A stretch of DNA of 64,000 nucleotides from Pectobacterium colocasium (GTDB lineage: Bacteria > Pseudomonadota > Gammaproteobacteria > Enterobacterales > Enterobacteriaceae), in the NCBI RefSeq assembly GCF_020181655.1, contig NZ_CP084032.1, forward strand, positions 4,526,001 through 4,590,000, read 5' to 3'. Below the pieces are notes generated by a model, which was not told the origin of the DNA, searched no databases, and saw only the letters and a program-made list of their open reading frames with translations. The number at the start of each line of letters is the position of its first letter. The first letter of the stretch is position 1. The translations under genes were made by a program, and so were the position numbers. This document shows positions 19,280 through 26,934 of this stretch, in pieces.

Positions 19280-19489
19280 AAAAAAAACGCTTACCGATAA
19301 ACGGTAAGCGTTGAAAATATCAGGTCTGTCAGACAACAGAATGGTGCCTCACTCAACGTTATGTCCGGAAAGCCCGATGGAGATTTGCATCTTCATCTGG
19401 AGTTGGACGATAGGCACCTCAAATTGGCTCTGCGTCATTCCCAGGATTATGAAGCCGAAGCAAACATAGAAGGTGGAATGAGCATCTAC
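19280..19489 (-). ncRNA. glmZ: GlmZ small regulatory RNA
   Basis: A ~210-nt RNA on the minus strand. The 5' end GTAGATGCTCATTCCA, the internal GGAATGACGCAGAGCC, and the 3' stretch AACGTTGAGTGA with TGTTGTC and ACAGACCTG match E. coli GlmZ, and the site next to hemY is also the E. coli location. It ends in an 11-bp terminator stem (19286-19296 and 19302-19312) followed by eight U. GlmZ with Hfq base-pairs with the glmS leader to activate glucosamine-6-phosphate synthase; RapZ and RNase E destroy it. The paralogue GlmY is less likely given the location. Confidence 0.93.
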
Positions 19490-19501
19490 CCGTATATTTA
19501 A

Positions 19502-19516
19502 GCACAAATTATGCCA
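19502..19516 (-). promoter_or_regulatory. Sigma-54 promoter of glmZ
   Basis: On the minus strand TGGCATAATTTGTGC places GG and GC exactly 12 bases apart, as in the -24/-12 consensus TGGCAC-N5-TTGC. The -12 GC lies 13 bases from the inferred GlmZ 5' end at 19489, the correct distance. AT-rich sequence between could also give a sigma-70 -10, as in the overlapping promoters known for these sRNA genes. Confidence 0.8.
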
Positions 19517-19650
19517 ATATGCATAACTTTATTGCCATCGCCCGATAAATTCATGATAACCCGCTAATAATAAATACTATTTTTATTTCTTCACTGGAAA
19601 TGAAGCAAACGCGCAATGGGTGATAAAAACGAGACGGACCTCACAAAACC

Positions 19651-19764
19651 TGTCGCTATTCAGAGACGGATTTATAAATAAAAATATTAAACCTTATTAA
19701 TCAACTAATTAAATGTCTCTTTTTTGCGACAGCAGATCCCGCCAAGTGTCGTGTTTTTCCGACA
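19651..19764. promoter_or_regulatory. Three GlrR-type activator boxes upstream of glmZ
   Basis: TGTC-N10-GACA, the GlrR (YfhA) recognition pattern, occurs exactly at 19714-19731 and 19747-19764, and once with GACG as the second half at 19651-19668. They lie about 160-275 bp upstream of the sigma-54 promoter, suitable for an enhancer-binding protein. In E. coli, GlrR drives glmY from three such sites; here the cluster precedes glmZ. Confidence 0.8.
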
Positions 19765-19855
19765 GTCCTATCAAAGCTGCTGATTTAATTTAGAAAAGGG
19801 GAACATATCCGCGCCGGAAAACAGACGCGAACAGAGTTGACTTAATGATAGGAGC

Positions 19856-21013
19856 TTAGCGGGAGGAGAGTTGTTCCAGACTCTGCTTCGCCATCTGGTA
19901 CAGATAGTGCGCGGTCGGGAACAGCGCGCGATCGTCAACGCGGAATTTCGGGTGGTGCAGCGCATATGGCCCGCCGGAGCCGACCATCATGAACGTACCA
20001 GGTAGTTTCTGCTGATAGAACGCAAAATCTTCACCAATCGGGCTGGCTTCCACACGACGTGCTTCAAACCCTTCGTCACTCGCCACATTCAGCGCAAACT
20101 CGACCCACTCCGGCGTGTTGATCACCGACGGCGGCCCTGCGTGCCACAGGAACTCGATTTCCGCACCAAAGGTGCTGGCAATACCGGCCACGATCTGGCG
20201 GAAACGCTGTTCAATCAAATCACGCGCATCCTGATTGAACGTTCTGACCGTGCCTTCAACGTAGGCAGTATCAGGGATAACGTTCCAGGTGCTGCCGCTA
20301 TGAACCTGAGTAATCGACACCACCGCGTTGTTGTCAGAAGACACAGTACGGCTGATGATGGTCTGTACGGCAGAAATCAACTGACCCAGAATGATAATCG
20401 GATCGTTGCCTTCATGTGGCTTCGCGGCATGACAGCCTTTTGCCGCAATCTTGATCTCAAAGCGGTCAACACCCGCCGTCAACGCGCCATCTTTCCCGCC
20501 GATAACGCCAACAGGCAGCGTCGGATCGTTGTGGATACCGAAAATCGCTACCGCATTGTCCAACGCACCAACCGCAATGACTTCCGGCGCGCCCAGCCCG
20601 GTTTCTTCGGCAGCCTGGAATAAAATTCGCACCGTGCCTTTCAGCTCCTGCTCGATTTTCTTCAGCAGAATCGCCGCGCCCAGCGCAGCGGAAGAGTGAA
20701 AATCATGACCGCAGGCGTGCATCACGCCTTTATTGAGCGACGTGAATTCTACGCCAGACTCTTCTTCAATCGGCAGGGCGTCGATGTCAGAACGCACCAC
20801 GACCAACGGGCCATCCTGAAGGCCGCCCACTTCGGCAACCAAACCCGTTTTCAGCGGCAGATCGAGGACGCGAATCCCCTCTTTTTCCAATACCGCACGA
20901 ATCTTCTTCGTGGTTTCAAACTCCTGATTCGACAGTTCAGGGTTGCGGTGTAAATCGTGGCGAAACGCCTGAATAAACTGAGCCAGAGGCTCATGTTGAG
21001 GTGCTGTTCTCAT
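19856..21013 (-). CDS. M20 amidohydrolase, probable N-acetylcysteine-type deacetylase (YxeP-like)
   Basis: A 385-residue M20/peptidase-D type amidohydrolase. Metal-binding residues appear in RSDIDALP (74-81), HACGHDFHS (99-107) and AAEETG (134-139). The family removes N-acyl groups from amino acids; B. subtilis relatives YxeP and YtnL act on N-acetylated cysteine derivatives. Start: the ATG at 21013 follows GGAG, while an in-frame GTG lies five codons upstream. It is last in the six-gene minus-strand operon with an acetyltransferase and a lyase, so it probably deacetylates the N-acetylcysteine released in the pathway. The precise substrate is inferred. Confidence 0.88.
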   Translation of the reverse strand: MRTAPQHEPLAQFIQAFRHDLHRNPELSNQEFETTKKIRAVLEKEGIRVLDLPLKTGLVAEVGGLQDGPLVVVRSDIDALPIEEESGVEFTSLNKGVMHACGHDFHSSAALGAAILLKKIEQELKGTVRILFQAAEETGLGAPEVIAVGALDNAVAIFGIHNDPTLPVGVIGGKDGALTAGVDRFEIKIAAKGCHAAKPHEGNDPIIILGQLISAVQTIISRTVSSDNNAVVSITQVHSGSTWNVIPDTAYVEGTVRTFNQDARDLIEQRFRQIVAGIASTFGAEIEFLWHAGPPSVINTPEWVEFALNVASDEGFEARRVEASPIGEDFAFYQQKLPGTFMMVGSGGPYALHHPKFRVDDRALFPTAHYLYQMAKQSLEQLSSR

Positions 21014-21090
21014 GAATACTTGCTCCACATTATCGTGCCCTGCCTGACAGGGCGGCCTTGTTCAGGCGTGCAGGTGTGTCTACGTATACG

Positions 21091-21852
21091 TTAAATATCG
21101 TACTCAAGCGGCTCAGGCAGCTTGGTCAACTGACGCAGGAAACGCTGGGTCTGCGGGTTGTCCGAGAAGCTAATGACTTGCTCCGCCGGACCTTCTTCAA
21201 CGATGTGCCCGTCCGCCATGAAGATCACACGGTCAGCCACTTCTTTCGCAAACTGCATTTCATGGGTAACGATCACCATCGTGGTGTCGTTCTTCGCCAG
21301 CTTCTGAATAACCTGAAGCACTTCGTGTACCCTTTCCGGGTCCAGCGCCGAGGTCGGTTCATCAAACAAAATCGCCTTAGGATCGACTGCCAGCGCACGC
21401 GCAATACTCACGCGCTGCTGCTGCCCGCCGGATAACGTCACCGGATACTGCGCCGCCTGCGGCAGCAGACCGACCTGCTCCAGCAAAGCAAGACCGATTT
21501 CATCCGCCTGCTTCTTCGGCATTTTTTTCACGACAATCAGCGCTTCCGTTACGTTCTCCAGCGCCGTCTTGTTCTTAAACAGGTTATAGCTCTGGAACAC
21601 CATCGCCGTCTGGCGGCGCAGCGCGTAGGCTTCTTTAGAAGAGTAACGACGCGTATCCAGCGTTTGGTCGCCAATGTGAATGGTGCCCGATTCTGGGGTT
21701 TCCAGCAGGTTCAGACAACGCAGCAGCGTGGATTTACCCGACCCGGATGGGCCGATAATCGCCACGACTTCGCCTTTCGCGATATCCAGACTAATGTTGT
21801 CCAACACCACCTGATCGCCAAAGCGTTTAGAAAGATTCTTTACACTGATCAT
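21091..21852 (-). CDS. Polar amino acid ABC transporter, ATPase
   Basis: A 253-residue ABC ATPase of the polar amino acid uptake group. It has Walker A GPSGSGKST (34-42), the signature LSGGQQQR, Walker B ILFDEPTSALD and the switch histidine in VIVTHEMQF. It pairs with the permease gene 9 bp upstream and the lipoprotein receptor further up. Relatives in sulphur operons (TcyN, YxeO) import cystine and modified cysteines. Substrate identity is inferred from the neighbouring enzymes. Confidence 0.93.
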   Translation of the reverse strand: MISVKNLSKRFGDQVVLDNISLDIAKGEVVAIIGPSGSGKSTLLRCLNLLETPESGTIHIGDQTLDTRRYSSKEAYALRRQTAMVFQSYNLFKNKTALENVTEALIVVKKMPKKQADEIGLALLEQVGLLPQAAQYPVTLSGGQQQRVSIARALAVDPKAILFDEPTSALDPERVHEVLQVIQKLAKNDTTMVIVTHEMQFAKEVADRVIFMADGHIVEEGPAEQVISFSDNPQTQRFLRQLTKLPEPLEYDI

Positions 21853-21861
21853 GTCAGCCCC

Positions 21862-22545
21862 TTATCGCTGTAGCGAGTGATTCAGTTTCTTCTCCAGCTG
21901 CTTTTGCAGCCAAGAGTAAACAATGATCACCAACCAGTAAATCAGACCCACAACCAGGAAGGTCTCAAAGAAACGCAGAGATTCGGCGGCAATCATTTTG
22001 CCTTCCGCGAACAGTTCGGAAACACCCAACGCAAAAGCCACCGAGGTATCTTTAATCAGAGAAATGAACGTGTTCCCCGTCGCTGGCAGCGCGTTCAGCA
22101 TGGCCTGAGGCAACACGATGCGGCGATAGACCTGCGCTTTACTCATGCCAATGGATAGACCCGCTTCCGTCTGACCGAAATCCACCGAAGCCAGACCCGC
22201 ACGGAAAATTTCTGCCATATAGGCGGACGTTTTCAGGCTAAAGCCGATAATCGCCGCCGTCATCGCATCCAGATTGGATAAGCCGGGGAACAGCTGCGGC
22301 AGGCCAAAGTAGATGATAAACAGTTGAACCAGCGACGGAATGCCGCGGAACAGCGAGATATACAGTTCGACGATTTTTACTACCACGACGACCTTGCTTT
22401 CACGGACTAACGCCAGGATAAGGCCGAGAACCATAGCAAAAAACATCGAAACCACGGCAAGAAACAGCGTGGTCGGCAAATACATTAATACCTGGGGAAA
22501 GACCTTTAACAGGTAGGCAAGATCGATATTCATGAGTAATACCAT
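21862..22545 (-). CDS. Polar amino acid ABC transporter, permease
   Basis: A 227-residue HisM/TcyL/YxeN-type permease with about five membrane segments and the EAA-like coupling loop EAGLSIGMSKAQVYRRIVLPQA. Only one permease gene is present, so it likely acts as a homodimer. Starts considered: GTG at 22557, ATG at 22545 (seven bases after GGTGGA, preferred) and ATG at 22533. It lies 117-130 bp downstream of the receptor gene. Transport of S-(2-succino)cysteine or a related thioether amino acid is inferred. Confidence 0.9.
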   Translation of the reverse strand: MVLLMNIDLAYLLKVFPQVLMYLPTTLFLAVVSMFFAMVLGLILALVRESKVVVVVKIVELYISLFRGIPSLVQLFIIYFGLPQLFPGLSNLDAMTAAIIGFSLKTSAYMAEIFRAGLASVDFGQTEAGLSIGMSKAQVYRRIVLPQAMLNALPATGNTFISLIKDTSVAFALGVSELFAEGKMIAAESLRFFETFLVVGLIYWLVIIVYSWLQKQLEKKLNHSLQR

Positions 22546-22674
22546 TAATGCTTCCACCGGCCATATTGCGCCGGTGGAACAGGGTTATGACTAGGCTATA
22601 TAACGAATCATCTGGCTATCTACATCACGAATCATCAATCTACGTAACGACCCGGCCAGAATGACGGCGTGAGG

Positions 22675-23466
22675 TTATTTAGCCGGTGATACCGTAATGT
22701 CTTCACCAAAATATTTTTCGGAGATCGCTTTCAGGCGTCCATCTGCACGCATTTTCGTTAACTCTGCATCGAACTGCTTACGCAACGCATCGCCTTTCTC
22801 GTCCTTATGGAACGGGAAGCTCACTTCTTCAATCACCAGCGGTTCACCAACCAGTTTGAACGGCAGGTTACGCTTATTGATTTCCGCCAGCAGGATAGGA
22901 CGTGAATTCACATAGCCTTCAACACGTTTAGATAACGCGTCGTTCATTGCGCCGTCGCGCGTTTCATAGGTGCGGATATTCACGCTGCCATCGGCAAACG
23001 CTTTTTTCAGGTTATTAACGTGGTTAGAACCCAGCACACCAGCCACTGTCTTCCCTTTTAGGTCAGCCAGCGTATTAATGTCCACGTTGTCTTTGTGCGT
23101 CACAATCTGGCTGCCGTAGAAGCTGTAAGGCTGGGCGAAATTGTATTTTTCCTGACGCGCAGGCGTAATTGCCACCACGTTCGCCACGGTATCCAGTTTT
23201 TTCGCTTCCAACTGTCCCATCAGGCCGCTGAAATCGGCGGTAACCCACTCAACTTTGTAGTTCAGATCTTTCGCAATGGCTTCCGTCACTTCAACGTCAA
23301 AGCCGACCAGCTTGTTATCTTGCTTGAAGCCGCTTGGATAGCTTTGGCCGGTTGAACCCACTTTCAGGACTTTTTCCTGCTCGGCGCTGCTTTTCCCAGA
23401 ATCACAGCCGGCTACAAGAAAGGCGGTCGTCAGCGCCAGAACAGACAACGTTACTTTTTTCATCAT
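22675..23466 (-). CDS. Amino acid ABC transporter substrate-binding lipoprotein
   Basis: A 263-residue family-3 solute-binding protein. The signal peptide ends in lipobox LVAGC (Cys21); the mature part has the two-lobe fold with GFDVEVTEAIAKDL and LKGKTVAGVLGSNH. It resembles TcyK/YxeM-type receptors for cystine-like ligands. The start overlaps the acetyltransferase stop by ATGA and follows GAGAGG. Because the receptor sits in the membrane facing the periplasm, it defines the substrate of this transporter; the ligand is not readable directly. Confidence 0.92.
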   Translation of the reverse strand: MMKKVTLSVLALTTAFLVAGCDSGKSSAEQEKVLKVGSTGQSYPSGFKQDNKLVGFDVEVTEAIAKDLNYKVEWVTADFSGLMGQLEAKKLDTVANVVAITPARQEKYNFAQPYSFYGSQIVTHKDNVDINTLADLKGKTVAGVLGSNHVNNLKKAFADGSVNIRTYETRDGAMNDALSKRVEGYVNSRPILLAEINKRNLPFKLVGEPLVIEEVSFPFHKDEKGDALRKQFDAELTKMRADGRLKAISEKYFGEDITVSPAK

Positions 23467-24005
23467 TTTACTGCCTCTCTTTTTGAGTTTTTATCTTTCC
23501 ACTGGTCATACAATTGGTTATCAAGGATTTTTTCCATCCAGATTGTCAGGTGTCCTTTCCCCAGATTCGTCTGCCCGACTTCCCTGAAACCATAATTTCT
23601 GTACATCTCGATCAGCCACGGGTGGTTTTGTGCCGTGCCAAGCGACACCGCAGGCGCTTTAAGCTGGTTAATCAGAATTTCTTCTTCCAACCAGCCCATC
23701 ATTTGCTTACCCAACCCCTGTTTTTTATAGCCAGGGTGCGTTGCAAACCAGCCCAGATGGGGTAAACCGAACGGGCCTGGCTCCGGCCCCCACGGATAGC
23801 GGATGGTAAATGACGACACCATCTCTCCGTCTTTCTCCATCACATAAACGCCGTGTGAGGCAATATGCGTGCGCACCATGTCGATATCCGCATGGGCAGC
23901 AGAGAAGTTGATACCTAACTGACGGATCGGCTCAAACGCCGCCAGCGCCAGCGCCAAAAAAGTTTCATCATCCGCAAGCGTAGCCTGACGAAATACGATA
24001 CTCAT
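23463..24005 (-). CDS. GNAT N-acetyltransferase, YxeL/SnaA-like
   Basis: A 180-residue GNAT-fold acetyltransferase. The acetyl-CoA binding motif appears as WFATHPGYKKQGLGKQMM (about residues 86-103), and the C-terminal MYRNYGFREVGQ is the usual helix-strand of the fold. It lies 9 bp after the lyase gene and overlaps the receptor gene. B. subtilis YxeL and SnaA acetylate the amino group of S-modified cysteines as the first step of salvage. A similar role on S-(2-succino)cysteine is inferred from context; antibiotic or protein acetylation is not suggested by the neighbourhood. Confidence 0.85.
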   Translation of the reverse strand: MSIVFRQATLADDETFLALALAAFEPIRQLGINFSAAHADIDMVRTHIASHGVYVMEKDGEMVSSFTIRYPWGPEPGPFGLPHLGWFATHPGYKKQGLGKQMMGWLEEEILINQLKAPAVSLGTAQNHPWLIEMYRNYGFREVGQTNLGKGHLTIWMEKILDNQLYDQWKDKNSKREAVK

Positions 24006-24014
24006 GGTGTCACC

Positions 24015-25379
24015 TTATGCTGGCAGCAGGCCGGAGTTGTCCGCATAACGAATCACGTCATCCACTTTCTGCGGCGCACTGCCAACGTAGTTAGCCGGAT
24101 TCAGCCATTCGTCCAGATCGGCGGCAGTCACCTGCTCGGAAAGCACCGGATGGGTCAATAGCACCGATTTAAACGATTGATTCTGCTCGAATGCCTGCAT
24201 AGAGCATTCGTAAACCAGATGGTGAGCGGTCTGCTTGCCGAGACGTTTACCAATCTCAAACATCACTTTTTCAGACAACAGCAGGCCATTTTGCAGATCG
24301 AGGTTCGCCAGCATTTGCTTCTCGTTGACGGACATCCCACGCAGGATGCCAAGCGCGTTCTGAAGCTGAGCGGACAGATAGATATTGATTTCCGGCAGCG
24401 CGATCCACTCCGCACGCCAGCTCATCGCATCACGCTCGTGCTCAACTTTCATGGATTCATGAATCAGCGCGGCACTCTTGAACAGCGGTGCCGTCAGGCT
24501 CGCCAGCCCTTCCAATGCGGCAGGGTTACGTTTATGCGGCATGGTGGTAGAACCGATTTTCCCTTCGGAGAACGGCTCTTCGATTTCATTAATCTCGGTG
24601 CGCATCAGGTTGTACAGCTCGTTGCCGATTTTACCCAGCGTACCGCTGATCAGCACCGCGACAGAAGCATATTCGGAGAAACGATCGCGGGCAGACTGCC
24701 AGCCGATGTTCGGCGTATTCAGCCCCAGTTTATCCAGCGTCAGACGCTCGATTTCCGGCCCTTGTTCGCCAAAAGAAGCATAGGTGCAGATGGCACCGTT
24801 AATGTTGCCGACCAGAACACGTTCTTTGATTTCACTCAGGCGTTCGAGGTGGCGAATAAATTCATCCAGCCACACGGCCAATTTGAAGCCAAACGTGGTA
24901 GGTAGCGCCTGCATACCGTGGGTACGACCGGCCATCAGCGTATATTGGTATTTCTTCGCCAGACGTTTCAGTTCAACGGCCAGCAATTGTGTATCTCTGA
25001 CGACAATATCAAAAGATTGTTTCAGCTGTAACACAGTTGCCGTATCAACGATGTCCTGCGTGGTCACGCCGTAGTGAATAAACTCACCTGCCGCGCCGCA
25101 CTGTTTCTGAATCGCGGTAATCGTCGGCATCAGAGAGTGCTTCATACGTGCCGCATCTTTTGCAATCTCTTCAACGTTAAGCGCACTTGCGTCAGCGTTT
25201 TCTGCAATGGTTTTTGCCGCATCCAGTGGAATGACACCCAGTTCACCCTCAGCAAGCGCCAGGGCAACTTCGACTTCGACCTGTTTAGTCAGGCGGTTAT
25301 GCTCGGACCAGACACCGCGCATTTCGGGCGTGCCAAAATTATTCCCTATAAGAAGAAAATCAATAAGATGTGATGCCAT
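24015..25379 (-). CDS. Fumarase/argininosuccinase-superfamily lyase, probable S-(2-succino)cysteine lyase
   Basis: A 454-residue member of the fumarase/aspartase superfamily, closest in style to adenylosuccinate lyase. It shows the active-site regions TTQD (106-109), GRTHGMQALP (151-160, His154) and the signature loop GSTTMPHKRNP (276-286). Every member eliminates fumarate from a succinyl adduct. It heads an operon with an acetyltransferase, amino acid ABC transporter and deacetylase rather than purine genes, and the sequence differs from ordinary PurB. Lyases of this kind acting on S-(2-succino)cysteine have been described in a similar context. Cleavage of (N-acetyl) succinocysteine to fumarate and a cysteine derivative is the best fit. 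Confidence 0.8.
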   Translation of the reverse strand: MASHLIDFLLIGNNFGTPEMRGVWSEHNRLTKQVEVEVALALAEGELGVIPLDAAKTIAENADASALNVEEIAKDAARMKHSLMPTITAIQKQCGAAGEFIHYGVTTQDIVDTATVLQLKQSFDIVVRDTQLLAVELKRLAKKYQYTLMAGRTHGMQALPTTFGFKLAVWLDEFIRHLERLSEIKERVLVGNINGAICTYASFGEQGPEIERLTLDKLGLNTPNIGWQSARDRFSEYASVAVLISGTLGKIGNELYNLMRTEINEIEEPFSEGKIGSTTMPHKRNPAALEGLASLTAPLFKSAALIHESMKVEHERDAMSWRAEWIALPEINIYLSAQLQNALGILRGMSVNEKQMLANLDLQNGLLLSEKVMFEIGKRLGKQTAHHLVYECSMQAFEQNQSFKSVLLTHPVLSEQVTAADLDEWLNPANYVGSAPQKVDDVIRYADNSGLLPA

Positions 25380-25465
25380 AATTAACTCGTTAGTGTTGGA
25401 TTTATCAGGCGGGATTTATGTCGTCTTTTTAATTTTTAAAAATATAACATGCGGAAATTATGCGC

Positions 25466-25495
25466 TTTATACCTTTGGGATCTATCTTAGATCAA
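25466..25495 (-). promoter_or_regulatory. Candidate promoter of the lyase operon with palindromic operator
   Basis: On the minus strand -35 TTGATC (25490-25495) and -10 TATAAA (25466-25471) are 18 bp apart. A perfect inverted repeat GATCTA-TCT-TAGATC occupies 25479-25493, overlapping the -35 and spacer, where a repressor would block RNA polymerase. The regulator is unknown; no regulator gene lies in the operon. Confidence 0.45.
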
Positions 25496-25626
25496 AAAGT
25501 TTGATTGCAAACTATGCATGTAGAAATGTTCGCTAACACTCTCTCCCAAGCGGAAAAGCCCGTTTGTCACTTTCCTCTTCCTACAATAAAACTTCTTATC
25601 CGTATGACTGCTGACGAAGGATTATC

Positions 25627-26934
25627 ATGCTTTCCCACACGACATTACGCATACCCCGTACCCTATTGATTACCATGATCATTATTTCTTCATTCTCTAC
25701 TCAGGCCCAGGCTCAGGATCGCTACCAGTTGGAAAAGGTGGTCGAAGTCAGCCGTCATGGCGTACGTCCTCCGACAGAATCCAACACGACGGCGCTGGAG
25801 TCCGGCACAGCACGAGAGTGGTCGAAGTGGGTCACACGCGAGGGTGAATTAACCGGACACGGCTATGCCGCTACCGTGCTAAAAGGCCACTATGAAGGCG
25901 AATATTATCGTCAACAGCATCTGTTCGCTTCAGGTTGTCCGACAGAGCAGCAGATTTACGTGCTCGCCAGTCCATTACAACGCACCCGCGCCACCGCACA
26001 AGCCTATATGGATGGCATGTTTCCCGGCTGTGGCGTGGCGACGCACGCCGTTGAGGATGAAAAGCAAGATCCGCTGTTCCACGGGGATAAAATGGGAATT
26101 GGCAGGCTTGATCCCGAACGGGCAAAGGCCGAAGTGTTGAAAGCAATGGGAGGCGATCTCAATATTGCCTATCAGCGGCTTCAACCCAGCATCGAGCAGT
26201 TGAAGCAGATCGTATGTAAAGCGGATAAACCGTGCCCGGTGTTTGATAAACCGTGGGCGATAAAACAGGATAAAGACGGTTCGATTTCTATCAGCGGCCT
26301 GAGTACGCTGGCGAATATGAGCGAGGTATTCCTGCTGGAGTACAGTGAGAATCTGCCACAGGTGCAGGTCGCATTTGGTCACGTCAGCAACACGCAGGAT
26401 CTCACTCCGTTGATGGCTCCGATGACGGCTAAATACGATTTCACCAATGATGTTCCCTATATCGCACAGCGCGGCGGTTCACTATTCATGCAGCAAATCG
26501 CACAGGCTCTGGCACAGGGGACGCAGGAAGAGCAAGACACCACACAAGGGGAGCCGCCGTCAGCCCCTTACTTACTGTATGTCGCCCATGACACCAACAT
26601 CGCCTACCTACGCACGATGTTGCAGTTTCATTGGCTGCTACCCGGCGATACCGCTGATAACATTCCCCCCGCGGGTAGCCTGGTATTCGAACGCTGGCGC
26701 GATACCACCACGCAACAGCGTTTTTTACGTATTTATTTCCAGACACAATCGCTGGATCAGATCCGTTCGCTGACGCCGTTGAGCGCTCAACAGCCGTTAT
26801 TGAAAGAAGAATTGACCTCTCAGGGCTGCCAGCAGACGGAAAAAGGCACGCTGTGCCCTTTCGATACCGCTCTGAAATCCATGCGAAAAAGTATCGATAG
26901 CAGCGCGCTGGCACCTGTGCACTACGCGCCATAA
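25627..26934 (+). CDS. Periplasmic histidine acid phosphatase / phytase (AppA/Agp-like)
   Basis: A 435-residue secreted histidine acid phosphatase. The signal peptide ends around AQAQA (residues 25-30). The catalytic motif RHGVRPP is at 43-49 and the proton-donor motif HDTN near 321; cysteines are paired along the chain as in AppA. The family releases phosphate from phytate (6-phytase) or glucose-1-phosphate. A plant-associated host supplies phytate, so phytase is plausible, but Agp-type activity cannot be excluded. It diverges from the lyase operon and is followed by a bidirectional terminator. Confidence 0.88.
   Translation: MLSHTTLRIPRTLLITMIIISSFSTQAQAQDRYQLEKVVEVSRHGVRPPTESNTTALESGTAREWSKWVTREGELTGHGYAATVLKGHYEGEYYRQQHLFASGCPTEQQIYVLASPLQRTRATAQAYMDGMFPGCGVATHAVEDEKQDPLFHGDKMGIGRLDPERAKAEVLKAMGGDLNIAYQRLQPSIEQLKQIVCKADKPCPVFDKPWAIKQDKDGSISISGLSTLANMSEVFLLEYSENLPQVQVAFGHVSNTQDLTPLMAPMTAKYDFTNDVPYIAQRGGSLFMQQIAQALAQGTQEEQDTTQGEPPSAPYLLYVAHDTNIAYLRTMLQFHWLLPGDTADNIPPAGSLVFERWRDTTTQQRFLRIYFQTQSLDQIRSLTPLSAQQPLLKEELTSQGCQQTEKGTLCPFDTALKSMRKSIDSSALAPVHYAP

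What the first reader, a model, noticed from the sequence alone, without database searches (positions are those of the whole stretch)
19856..25379. Six-gene operon that looks like a lyase-type S-(2-succino)cysteine catabolic system
Fumarase-superfamily lyase, GNAT acetyltransferase, lipoprotein receptor, permease, ATPase and M20 deacetylase are packed on one strand (9-bp gap, ATGA overlap). All B. subtilis yxe functions are present except the YxeK monooxygenase and YxeQ; the lyase would replace them. Expected route: import of succinocysteine, N-acetylation, elimination of fumarate, deacetylation to cysteine. Lyase pathways of this kind have been reported in some bacteria, Dickeya among them as I recall. 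Product fumarate would link sulphur salvage to carbon use.
Basis: partly seen in the sequence, partly recalled or inferred. Interest (0 to 1): 0.8.

Follow-up and report, generated by a model that had tools for sequence, protein, structure and literature searches.

The report
Succinocysteine salvage operon, lyase type
A Pectobacterium operon very probably recovers cysteine from fumarate-damaged cysteine by a lyase route already published for the related Dickeya, and comparing genomes points to a separate, uncharacterised partner enzyme (YxeQ) that may flip the handedness of the damaged molecule.

Summary
The six-gene operon is real and is an ortholog of a published system: the S-(2-succino)cysteine (2SC) pathway with S-(2-succino) lyase (2SL), shown biochemically for Dickeya dadantii and Enterococcus italicus (PMC9706529). 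The genome is Pectobacterium-like. Its lyase is 63% identical to that of the same E. italicus strain and 88-89% to those of nine Dickeya genomes, with the same five partner genes beside it. The M20 protein's best solved match is B. subtilis YxeP.

One correction is the most interesting result. The lyase does not replace YxeQ. Of 59 loci from the lyase search, 30 carry a YxeQ-like gene nearby and 26 more elsewhere in the genome; the window's genome has one 0.55 Mb away. In 295 Enterobacteriaceae genomes YxeQ occurs in 18 of 19 with 2SL and in 11 of 276 without, nine of those beside a YxeK-type monooxygenase. YxeQ belongs to the MmgE/PrpD family, which includes two epimerases of 2-substituted succinates. 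I propose that YxeQ interconverts the C2 diastereomers of (N-acetyl-)2SC. This is inference; no activity is shown.

The parts
24015..25379 (-). S-(2-succino) lyase (2SL), 454 aa, fumarase/aspartase superfamily
   Evidence: 63% identical to the E. italicus DSM 15952 gene, 88-89% to nine Dickeya genomes; tree and 17 diagnostic positions
23463..24005 (-). GNAT acetyltransferase, YxeL/ScmL-like, 180 aa; proposed 2SC N-acetyltransferase
   Evidence: Pfam GNAT; GNAT beside the lyase in 58 of 59 loci; no solved relative at E 0.001
22675..23466 (-). Solute-binding lipoprotein, YxeM-like, 263 aa; lipobox LVAGC followed by Asp
   Evidence: SBP_bac_3; 67% identical to the E. italicus partner; lipobox survey
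22552..22579 (-). Hairpin TTCCACCGGC-loop-GCCGGTGGAA between receptor and permease genes
   Evidence: 3 of 100 shuffles reach it in the window; 17 of 31 rows tested pass 2 of 100
21862..22557 (-). ABC permease, YxeN-like; the start is more likely the ATG at 22545 or 22533, because the listed GTG lies in the hairpin
21091..21852 (-). ABC ATPase, YxeO-like, 253 aa
19856..21028 (-). M20 amidohydrolase, YxeP/ScmP-like, 390 aa; proposed N-acetylcysteine deacetylase
   Evidence: best solved match is B. subtilis YxeP 1ysj, 395.6 bits
25479..25493 (.). Palindrome GATCTA-N3-TAGATC in the conserved block upstream of the lyase; possible operator
   Evidence: only site in the 4.91-Mb genome; exact in 17 of 23 aligned upstream regions

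Best explanation
The operon encodes the lyase variant of the yxe/scm pathway. An ABC importer (YxeMNO-like, its receptor probably anchored in the inner membrane) takes up 2SC. The GNAT acetylates the amino group to give N-acetyl-2SC. 2SL eliminates fumarate and leaves N-acetylcysteine. The M20 enzyme releases cysteine. The three enzymatic steps are shown in print for relatives (the 2SL step for two orthologs); here every step is inferred from orthology and gene order. The importer's ligand is inferred only. The genome also keeps an unlinked YxeQ; its proposed role is in the section on the most novel reading.
For: PMC9706529 (abstract and parts 1-4 of 6 of the main section): 2SL of D. dadantii and E. 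italicus complement a B. subtilis yxeK mutant and split N-acetyl-2SC. The same E. italicus strain is locus L053: lyase 63%, partners 38-67%. Lyase and all five partners in 9 of 9 Dickeya genomes. Lyase in 25 of 25 Pectobacterium genomes. Context: 34 of 59 loci with all five partners, against none in five stretches around relatives at 41-43% identity. Tree and 17 diagnostic positions. M20 best matches YxeP. Genuine PurB is elsewhere.
Against: No activity was measured here. The D. dadantii sequence (E0SKP1) could not be compared directly; other Dickeya stand in for it. The receptor's ligand is open: its best NCBIfam model, a cystine receptor, is far below cut-off (148 of 312 bits). The GNAT is the least conserved partner (38% to E. 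italicus). 15 of 59 loci lack a YxeP within 7 kb. The lyase exceeds NCBI's purB cut-off (375 against 326 bits).
Confidence: 0.92

Rival explanations
1. The lyase is a second adenylosuccinate lyase or another C-N/C-C lyase (PcaB-like), and the operon takes up some other amino acid derivative.
For: It passes NCBIfam TIGR00928 purB (375.1 bits, cut-off 326.2), and its best solved relatives are trans-aconitate decarboxylase, PcaB and ADSL structures.
Against: The genome has a proper PurB (802 bits to NF006764; 26% identical to the lyase). The lyase groups with the characterised 2SL of E. italicus and sits with the yxe partners.
Confidence: 0.03
2. The operon salvages a different succinated or sulfonated thiol (for example an XcbD-like substrate or another small-thiol adduct), with 2SC as a side substrate.
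For: The second-best NCBIfam model is XcbD, 3-sulfopropionylcysteine synthase (438.9 bits, cut-off 600). Published 2SL enzymes also act on several small thiols.
Against: N-acetylcysteine was the best thiol tested in print, and the YxeL and YxeP partners point to an N-acetylcysteine intermediate.
Confidence: 0.04
3. The enzyme works mainly in the synthetic direction, trapping fumarate or thiols as succinated products.
For: Equilibrium favours synthesis (Kc 0.0046 and 0.0067) and the reverse reaction is fast in vitro.
Against: It is encoded with an importer and a downstream deacetylase, and the published complementation is in the breakdown direction.
Confidence: 0.01

Closest known systems
2SL-type yxe locus of Dickeya dadantii and Enterococcus italicus (Hillmann et al. 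2022, PMC9706529)
   Same: Lyase in place of YxeK, with YxeL, YxeMNO and YxeP partners
   Different: No YxeQ in the Pectobacterium operon, but an unlinked copy in the genome. E. italicus has a YxeQ-like gene beside its lyase
B. subtilis yxe/scm operon (YxeK monooxygenase type)
   Same: Acetylation, breakdown, deacetylation logic; M20 best matches YxeP
   Different: Lyase instead of the FMN monooxygenase; fumarate instead of oxaloacetate; no oxygen needed (paper's argument)
CmoO/CmoJ S-alkylcysteine salvage cluster
   Same: Same strategy and the same gene classes; one such cluster is in this genome (L071)
   Different: Oxidative C-S cleavage by flavoenzymes (passages of PMC10863075); no lyase
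For YxeQ: iminodisuccinate epimerase and (S)-(R)-methylsuccinate isomerase, MmgE/PrpD family
   Same: Family; 2-substituted succinate substrates; active-site residues shared
   Different: Their substrates are N- and C-substituted; the proposed YxeQ substrate is S-substituted. I found no assay of YxeQ

Membership tests
S-(2-succino) lyase (2SL) | Groups with the characterised enzymes rather than with PurB, PcaB or other lyases | tested here: met
   Window in a 54-row group (99/99), joined by the E. italicus group into 57 rows (92/89); L054 unresolved and several long branches flagged. 17 positions invariant in 58 clade rows and absent from 7 outgroup rows
[quoted passage not shown]
   YxeL, YxeMNO and YxeP-like genes in one operon
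S-(2-succino) lyase (2SL) | No close YxeK in the genome | tested here: met
   Six Bac_luciferase places. The one of YxeK-like subfamily in a sulphur-type cluster is 57% identical to YtnJ and 45-48% to nine yxe-linked monooxygenases. B. subtilis YxeK itself was not available, and not all six were compared
S-(2-succino) lyase (2SL) | Cleaves N-acetyl-2SC to fumarate and N-acetylcysteine | not testable with these tools
   Needs an enzyme assay
Adenylosuccinate lyase (PurB) | The genome's purine-pathway lyase | tested here: not met
   PurB is a separate gene at G000:C1:2256481-2257779, although the purB model's cut-off is passed by the window lyase
YxeQ as epimerase of the MmgE/PrpD family | MmgE/PrpD domains and nearer by sequence to IDS epimerase than to mammalian decarboxylase | tested here: met
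   Pfam (on the Klebsiella copy); 176 against about 100 bits, 163 against about 100 bits
YxeQ as epimerase of the MmgE/PrpD family | Active-site residues that set epimerases apart | tested here: inconclusive
   The two proposed bases are kept in 55 of 55 rows, but the genome's other MmgE/PrpD protein also has both as aligned; it differs at three other sites
YxeQ as epimerase of the MmgE/PrpD family | Epimerase activity on 2SC or N-acetyl-2SC | not testable with these tools
   Needs an enzyme assay

The most novel reading that the evidence does not exclude
YxeQ, the yxe-locus protein listed as of unknown function, is a C2-epimerase of S-(2-succino)cysteine or N-acetyl-2SC. Fumarate adds to thiols without an enzyme, so both diastereomers at the succinyl carbon should form (chemistry recalled), and a lyase or a monooxygenase would be expected to take one. 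An MmgE/PrpD enzyme would interconvert them, as members of its family do for N-substituted (iminodisuccinate) and C-substituted (methylsuccinate) succinates. It serves both cleavage variants and stays in the genome when it is not in the operon, as in Pectobacterium and Dickeya.
Probability: 0.55. Interest if true: 0.7.

Novelty: new member of a known kind. Interest (0 to 1): 0.5.

Why it matters
2SC is a marker of fumarate overload in diabetes and some cancers (PMC9706529), so complete bacterial disposal pathways are of interest. The operon extends a two-species biochemical result to every Pectobacterium genome searched (25 of 25), and the lyase is easily misnamed PurB. The larger point is YxeQ: if it is an epimerase, the published pathway lacks a step, both diastereomers formed by succination become usable, and a structure deposited as a cis-aconitate decarboxylase (7BRA) would need another function. 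One coupled assay would decide.

Tried and rejected
PurB or another C-N lyase: rejected, because the genome has its own PurB and the context fits 2SL. XcbD-type enzyme: below cut-off. A YxeK elsewhere in the genome: the cluster-borne candidate is CmoJ/YtnJ type; the other five Bac_luciferase places were not compared with YxeK-type proteins. Relatives at 38-44% identity as further 2SL enzymes: five such stretches have no yxe neighbours, and the 40% paralog in another Pectobacterium sits beside a transporter and a GntR-like regulator (labels from the translations). Riboswitch upstream: at gathering thresholds Rfam lists only GlmZ in 19400-25700. The promoter scan found no consensus site on the operon strand. 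No structure was predicted.

Weak points. The Fisher p of 2.4e-20 ignores kinship; by genus 11 of 12 genera with 2SL also have YxeQ. The YxeQ-like genes of Gilliamella, E. italicus and Pasteurellaceae are only about 30-35% identical to the window genome's copy. That 7BRA is YxeQ is inferred (B. subtilis, 445 aa) and recalled, not read. 'YxeK-type' for the nine monooxygenases rests on gene context and on their being a group apart from YtnJ; no B. subtilis YxeK sequence was at hand. I found no statement on 2SL stereospecificity. Searches (15 of 45 papers listed; 2 papers; one seen as listing only; 1 paper) showed no paper that proposes the epimerase role, but the 2018 discovery paper is not held, and for the YxeK paper I asked with a wrong DOI and did not ask again when one search showed the right one.
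Full report
WHAT IS THERE. Six minus-strand genes occupy 19856-25379 as described: lyase, GNAT acetyltransferase, solute-binding lipoprotein, permease, ATPase and M20 amidohydrolase, with matching Pfam domains. Upstream, read the other way, is a frame that looks like the acid phosphatase agp; downstream are frames that look like hemC, hemD, hemX and hemY (these names are recalled from the translations) and a GlmZ sRNA match at 19400-19489, minus, cut by the edge of the searched stretch. The window lies in a 4.91-Mb single-contig genome. The nearest named loci are Pectobacterium, with lyases 98-99% identical.

THE PATHWAY IS PUBLISHED. I read the abstract and parts 1-4 of 6 of the main section of PMC9706529. 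[quoted passage not shown] The genes of Enterococcus italicus DSM 15952 and Dickeya dadantii complement a B. subtilis yxeK mutant on 2SC, and the enzymes split N-acetyl-2SC into fumarate and N-acetylcysteine, strongly preferring it to 2SC.

THIS OPERON BELONGS TO IT. One search of the species genomes gave 59 loci. One is E. italicus DSM 15952 itself (L053): lyase 63%, partners 38, 67, 63, 66 and 55% identical. Of the 59, 34 keep L, M, N, O and P on the lyase's strand within 7 kb, 15 lack only P, 7 keep L and P (L064 among them, its lyase a fragment), one keeps L alone, one (L062, lyase frame interrupted as held, near a contig end) keeps L, M and N, and one (L063, 34% identical) keeps none (identity and coverage floors are in the script). 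The lyase is in 25 of 25 Pectobacterium genomes and, at 88-89%, in 9 of 9 genomes of a genus group with all five partners beside it. That group is Dickeya, because two members contain exactly the D. oryzae and D. undicola lyase gene. D. dadantii could not be picked out by name.

SPECIFICITY TESTS. In a 66-row tree the window is in a 54-row gammaproteobacterial group (99/99), joined by the three-row group with E. italicus (57 rows, 92/89); one Clostridiaceae sequence (L054) is unresolved and several long branches are flagged. Over 58 clade rows (L062 and L064 left out as incomplete, L063 used as outgroup) 127 of 454 positions never vary, and 17 of these are absent from all seven outgroup rows. 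Of 295 Enterobacteriaceae genomes 41 have a match at E 1e-100 or better: 19 at 70% identity or more (one partial), 22 only at 38-44%. I count the 19 as 2SL. Five stretches around relatives at 41-43% show no yxe gene. The M20 protein's best solved match is B. subtilis YxeP, 395.6 bits. The lyase passes NCBI's purB cut-off, but the genome's PurB is another gene.

YXEQ IS NOT REPLACED. Klebsiella michiganensis has an MmgE/PrpD gene right after 2SL, yxeL and yxeP. Searching with it finds YxeQ-like genes at 30 of the 59 loci, among them E. italicus, Gilliamella, Providencia and Pasteurellaceae (identity 33-100% to the query, some over only 58-73% of it). The window's genome has one 55% identical, at C1:3999555-4000883, beside frames that look like a TonB receptor and an AraC regulator. 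Of the 29 loci without it nearby, 25 genomes hold a copy at least 51% identical to the window genome's (two of them broken), one holds a 40% copy with one stop in frame (L059), and three hold none or only a 31% paralog (L025, L062, L063). So 56 of 59 have a copy, three of them damaged. All 25 Pectobacterium and all nine Dickeya genomes have it.

CO-OCCURRENCE. In the same 295 genomes YxeQ (E 1e-40 or better; identity 50-100%) is in 29: 18 of the 19 with 2SL and 11 of the 276 without (the one miss, G088, is 91% complete). By genus it is 11 of 12. Of the 11, nine hold YxeQ in a stretch with a YxeK-type monooxygenase, eight of these also with yxeL and yxeP; G046 and G244 have an orphan copy. These nine monooxygenases are 72-96% identical to each other and 44-46% to YtnJ, while the window genome's own is 57% identical to YtnJ and 45-48% to the nine. 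One genus (g116) has a 2SL genome and two YxeK-type genomes, all with YxeQ; another (g2) has one genome with both 2SL and YxeQ and one with neither. In a quick tree of 42 of 57 rows, YxeQ from lyase-type and monooxygenase-type loci are mixed, and the 11 unlinked copies fall in the same 30-row group. In Symbiopectobacterium the intact operon (L018) goes with an intact YxeQ, and the two eroded operons (L021, L023) with broken ones; three cases in decaying genomes are only suggestive.

WHAT YXEQ MAY DO. The best solved match of the window genome's YxeQ is 'Bacillus subtilis IRG1' (7BRA, 250 bits), then iminodisuccinate (IDS) epimerase (176), then mammalian cis-aconitate decarboxylase (about 100). 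The 7BRA paper (PMC7347537, passages only) says its active site is completely conserved with IDS epimerase, two proposed bases included, and not with the mammalian enzyme; the passages that I saw show docking and no assay. PMC12290011 (passages) says that the B. subtilis protein was described as a decarboxylase without evidence of activity and most likely catalyses another, unknown reaction, and that a different member of the family interconverts (S)- and (R)-methylsuccinate. The two bases are kept in 55 of 55 YxeQ rows, three of them second copies of the same locus. Against this as proof, the genome's other MmgE/PrpD protein also has both bases as aligned; it differs at R100 and at the K and H of KPLHAG. 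PMC9706529 lists YxeQ as of unknown function and has no word beginning with diastereomer, stereo, epimer or enantiomer. A stereospecific lyase and a stereospecific monooxygenase would both need the other diastereomer turned round, which would explain why YxeQ follows both. That is inference.

OTHER FEATURES. The lipobox cysteine of the receptor is followed by Asp in 43 of 50 loci with an operon yxeM; the exceptions are three Bacillota (Ser, Gly, Gly), Thorsellia (Gly), two Pasteurellaceae (Asn) and one locus without a readable lipobox (a first pattern missed three). By the recalled Lol rule Asp keeps the protein on the inner membrane. The hairpin between receptor and permease differs in sequence between lineages; of 32 rows that could be placed (of 51, window included) one has no gap and 17 of 31 pass at 2 or fewer of 100 shuffles, the window being at 3. 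The upstream palindrome occurs once in the genome and exactly in 17 of 23 aligned upstream regions; the half TAGATC is in 23 of 23.

VERDICT. Observation confirmed; interpretation supported with one correction; the operon is a new member of a known kind; the testable new idea is YxeQ.

Noticed in passing
L091:8556-9884 + (G000:C1:3999555-4000883): Orphan YxeQ-like MmgE/PrpD gene of the window's genome, beside frames that look like a TonB receptor and an AraC regulator; present in 25 of 25 Pectobacterium genomes.
   Followed up: yes
L071:6454-15955 (G000:C1:2550453-2559954): A second sulphur-type cluster in the same genome: MsnO8-type flavoenzyme, M20, flavin reductase, YtnJ/CmoJ-type monooxygenase, two receptors, GNAT, permease, ATPase; looks like S-alkylcysteine salvage.
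   Followed up: partly
L073:7117-7554 (G000:C1:1870116-1870553): Only the C-terminal part of a 40%-type lyase paralog remains in this genome, beside an intact transporter and a shortened GntR-like gene; 13 of 24 other Pectobacterium genomes have a match over nearly the full length, one with a stop.
   Followed up: partly
23400-23466: Receptor lipobox with Asp after the cysteine in 43 of 50 loci (0 of 3 Bacillota): an inner-membrane-anchored receptor would be unusual beside free periplasmic amino acid receptors.
   Followed up: partly
22552-22579: Hairpin before the permease gene with lineage-specific sequence; may set receptor above permease expression.
   Followed up: partly
25479-25493: Genome-unique palindrome in the upstream block; no regulator gene lies in the operon.
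   Followed up: partly
L032:7900-15300: Klebsiella michiganensis type: 2SL, yxeL, yxeP and YxeQ in a row, with a different ABC transporter on the other strand; six further loci keep only L and P near the lyase.
   Followed up: partly
L107 and L064 (Serratia rubidaea): A 2SL fragment beside a YxeK-type monooxygenase: a swap of the cleavage enzyme caught in progress.
   Followed up: no
L021, L023 (Symbiopectobacterium): Operon genes shortened or missing in two insect-associated genomes, whose YxeQ is also broken.
   Followed up: no
24015-25379: Annotation trap: the lyase exceeds NCBI's purB equivalog cut-off.
   Followed up: yes
Gilliamella loci L030-L055 (12 loci with LMNO only): No YxeP-like gene near the lyase; no match in four of these loci searched whole by tblastn (L030, L031, L033, L036).
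   Followed up: no
19400-19489: GlmZ sRNA match on the operon strand just downstream of the operon.
   Followed up: no
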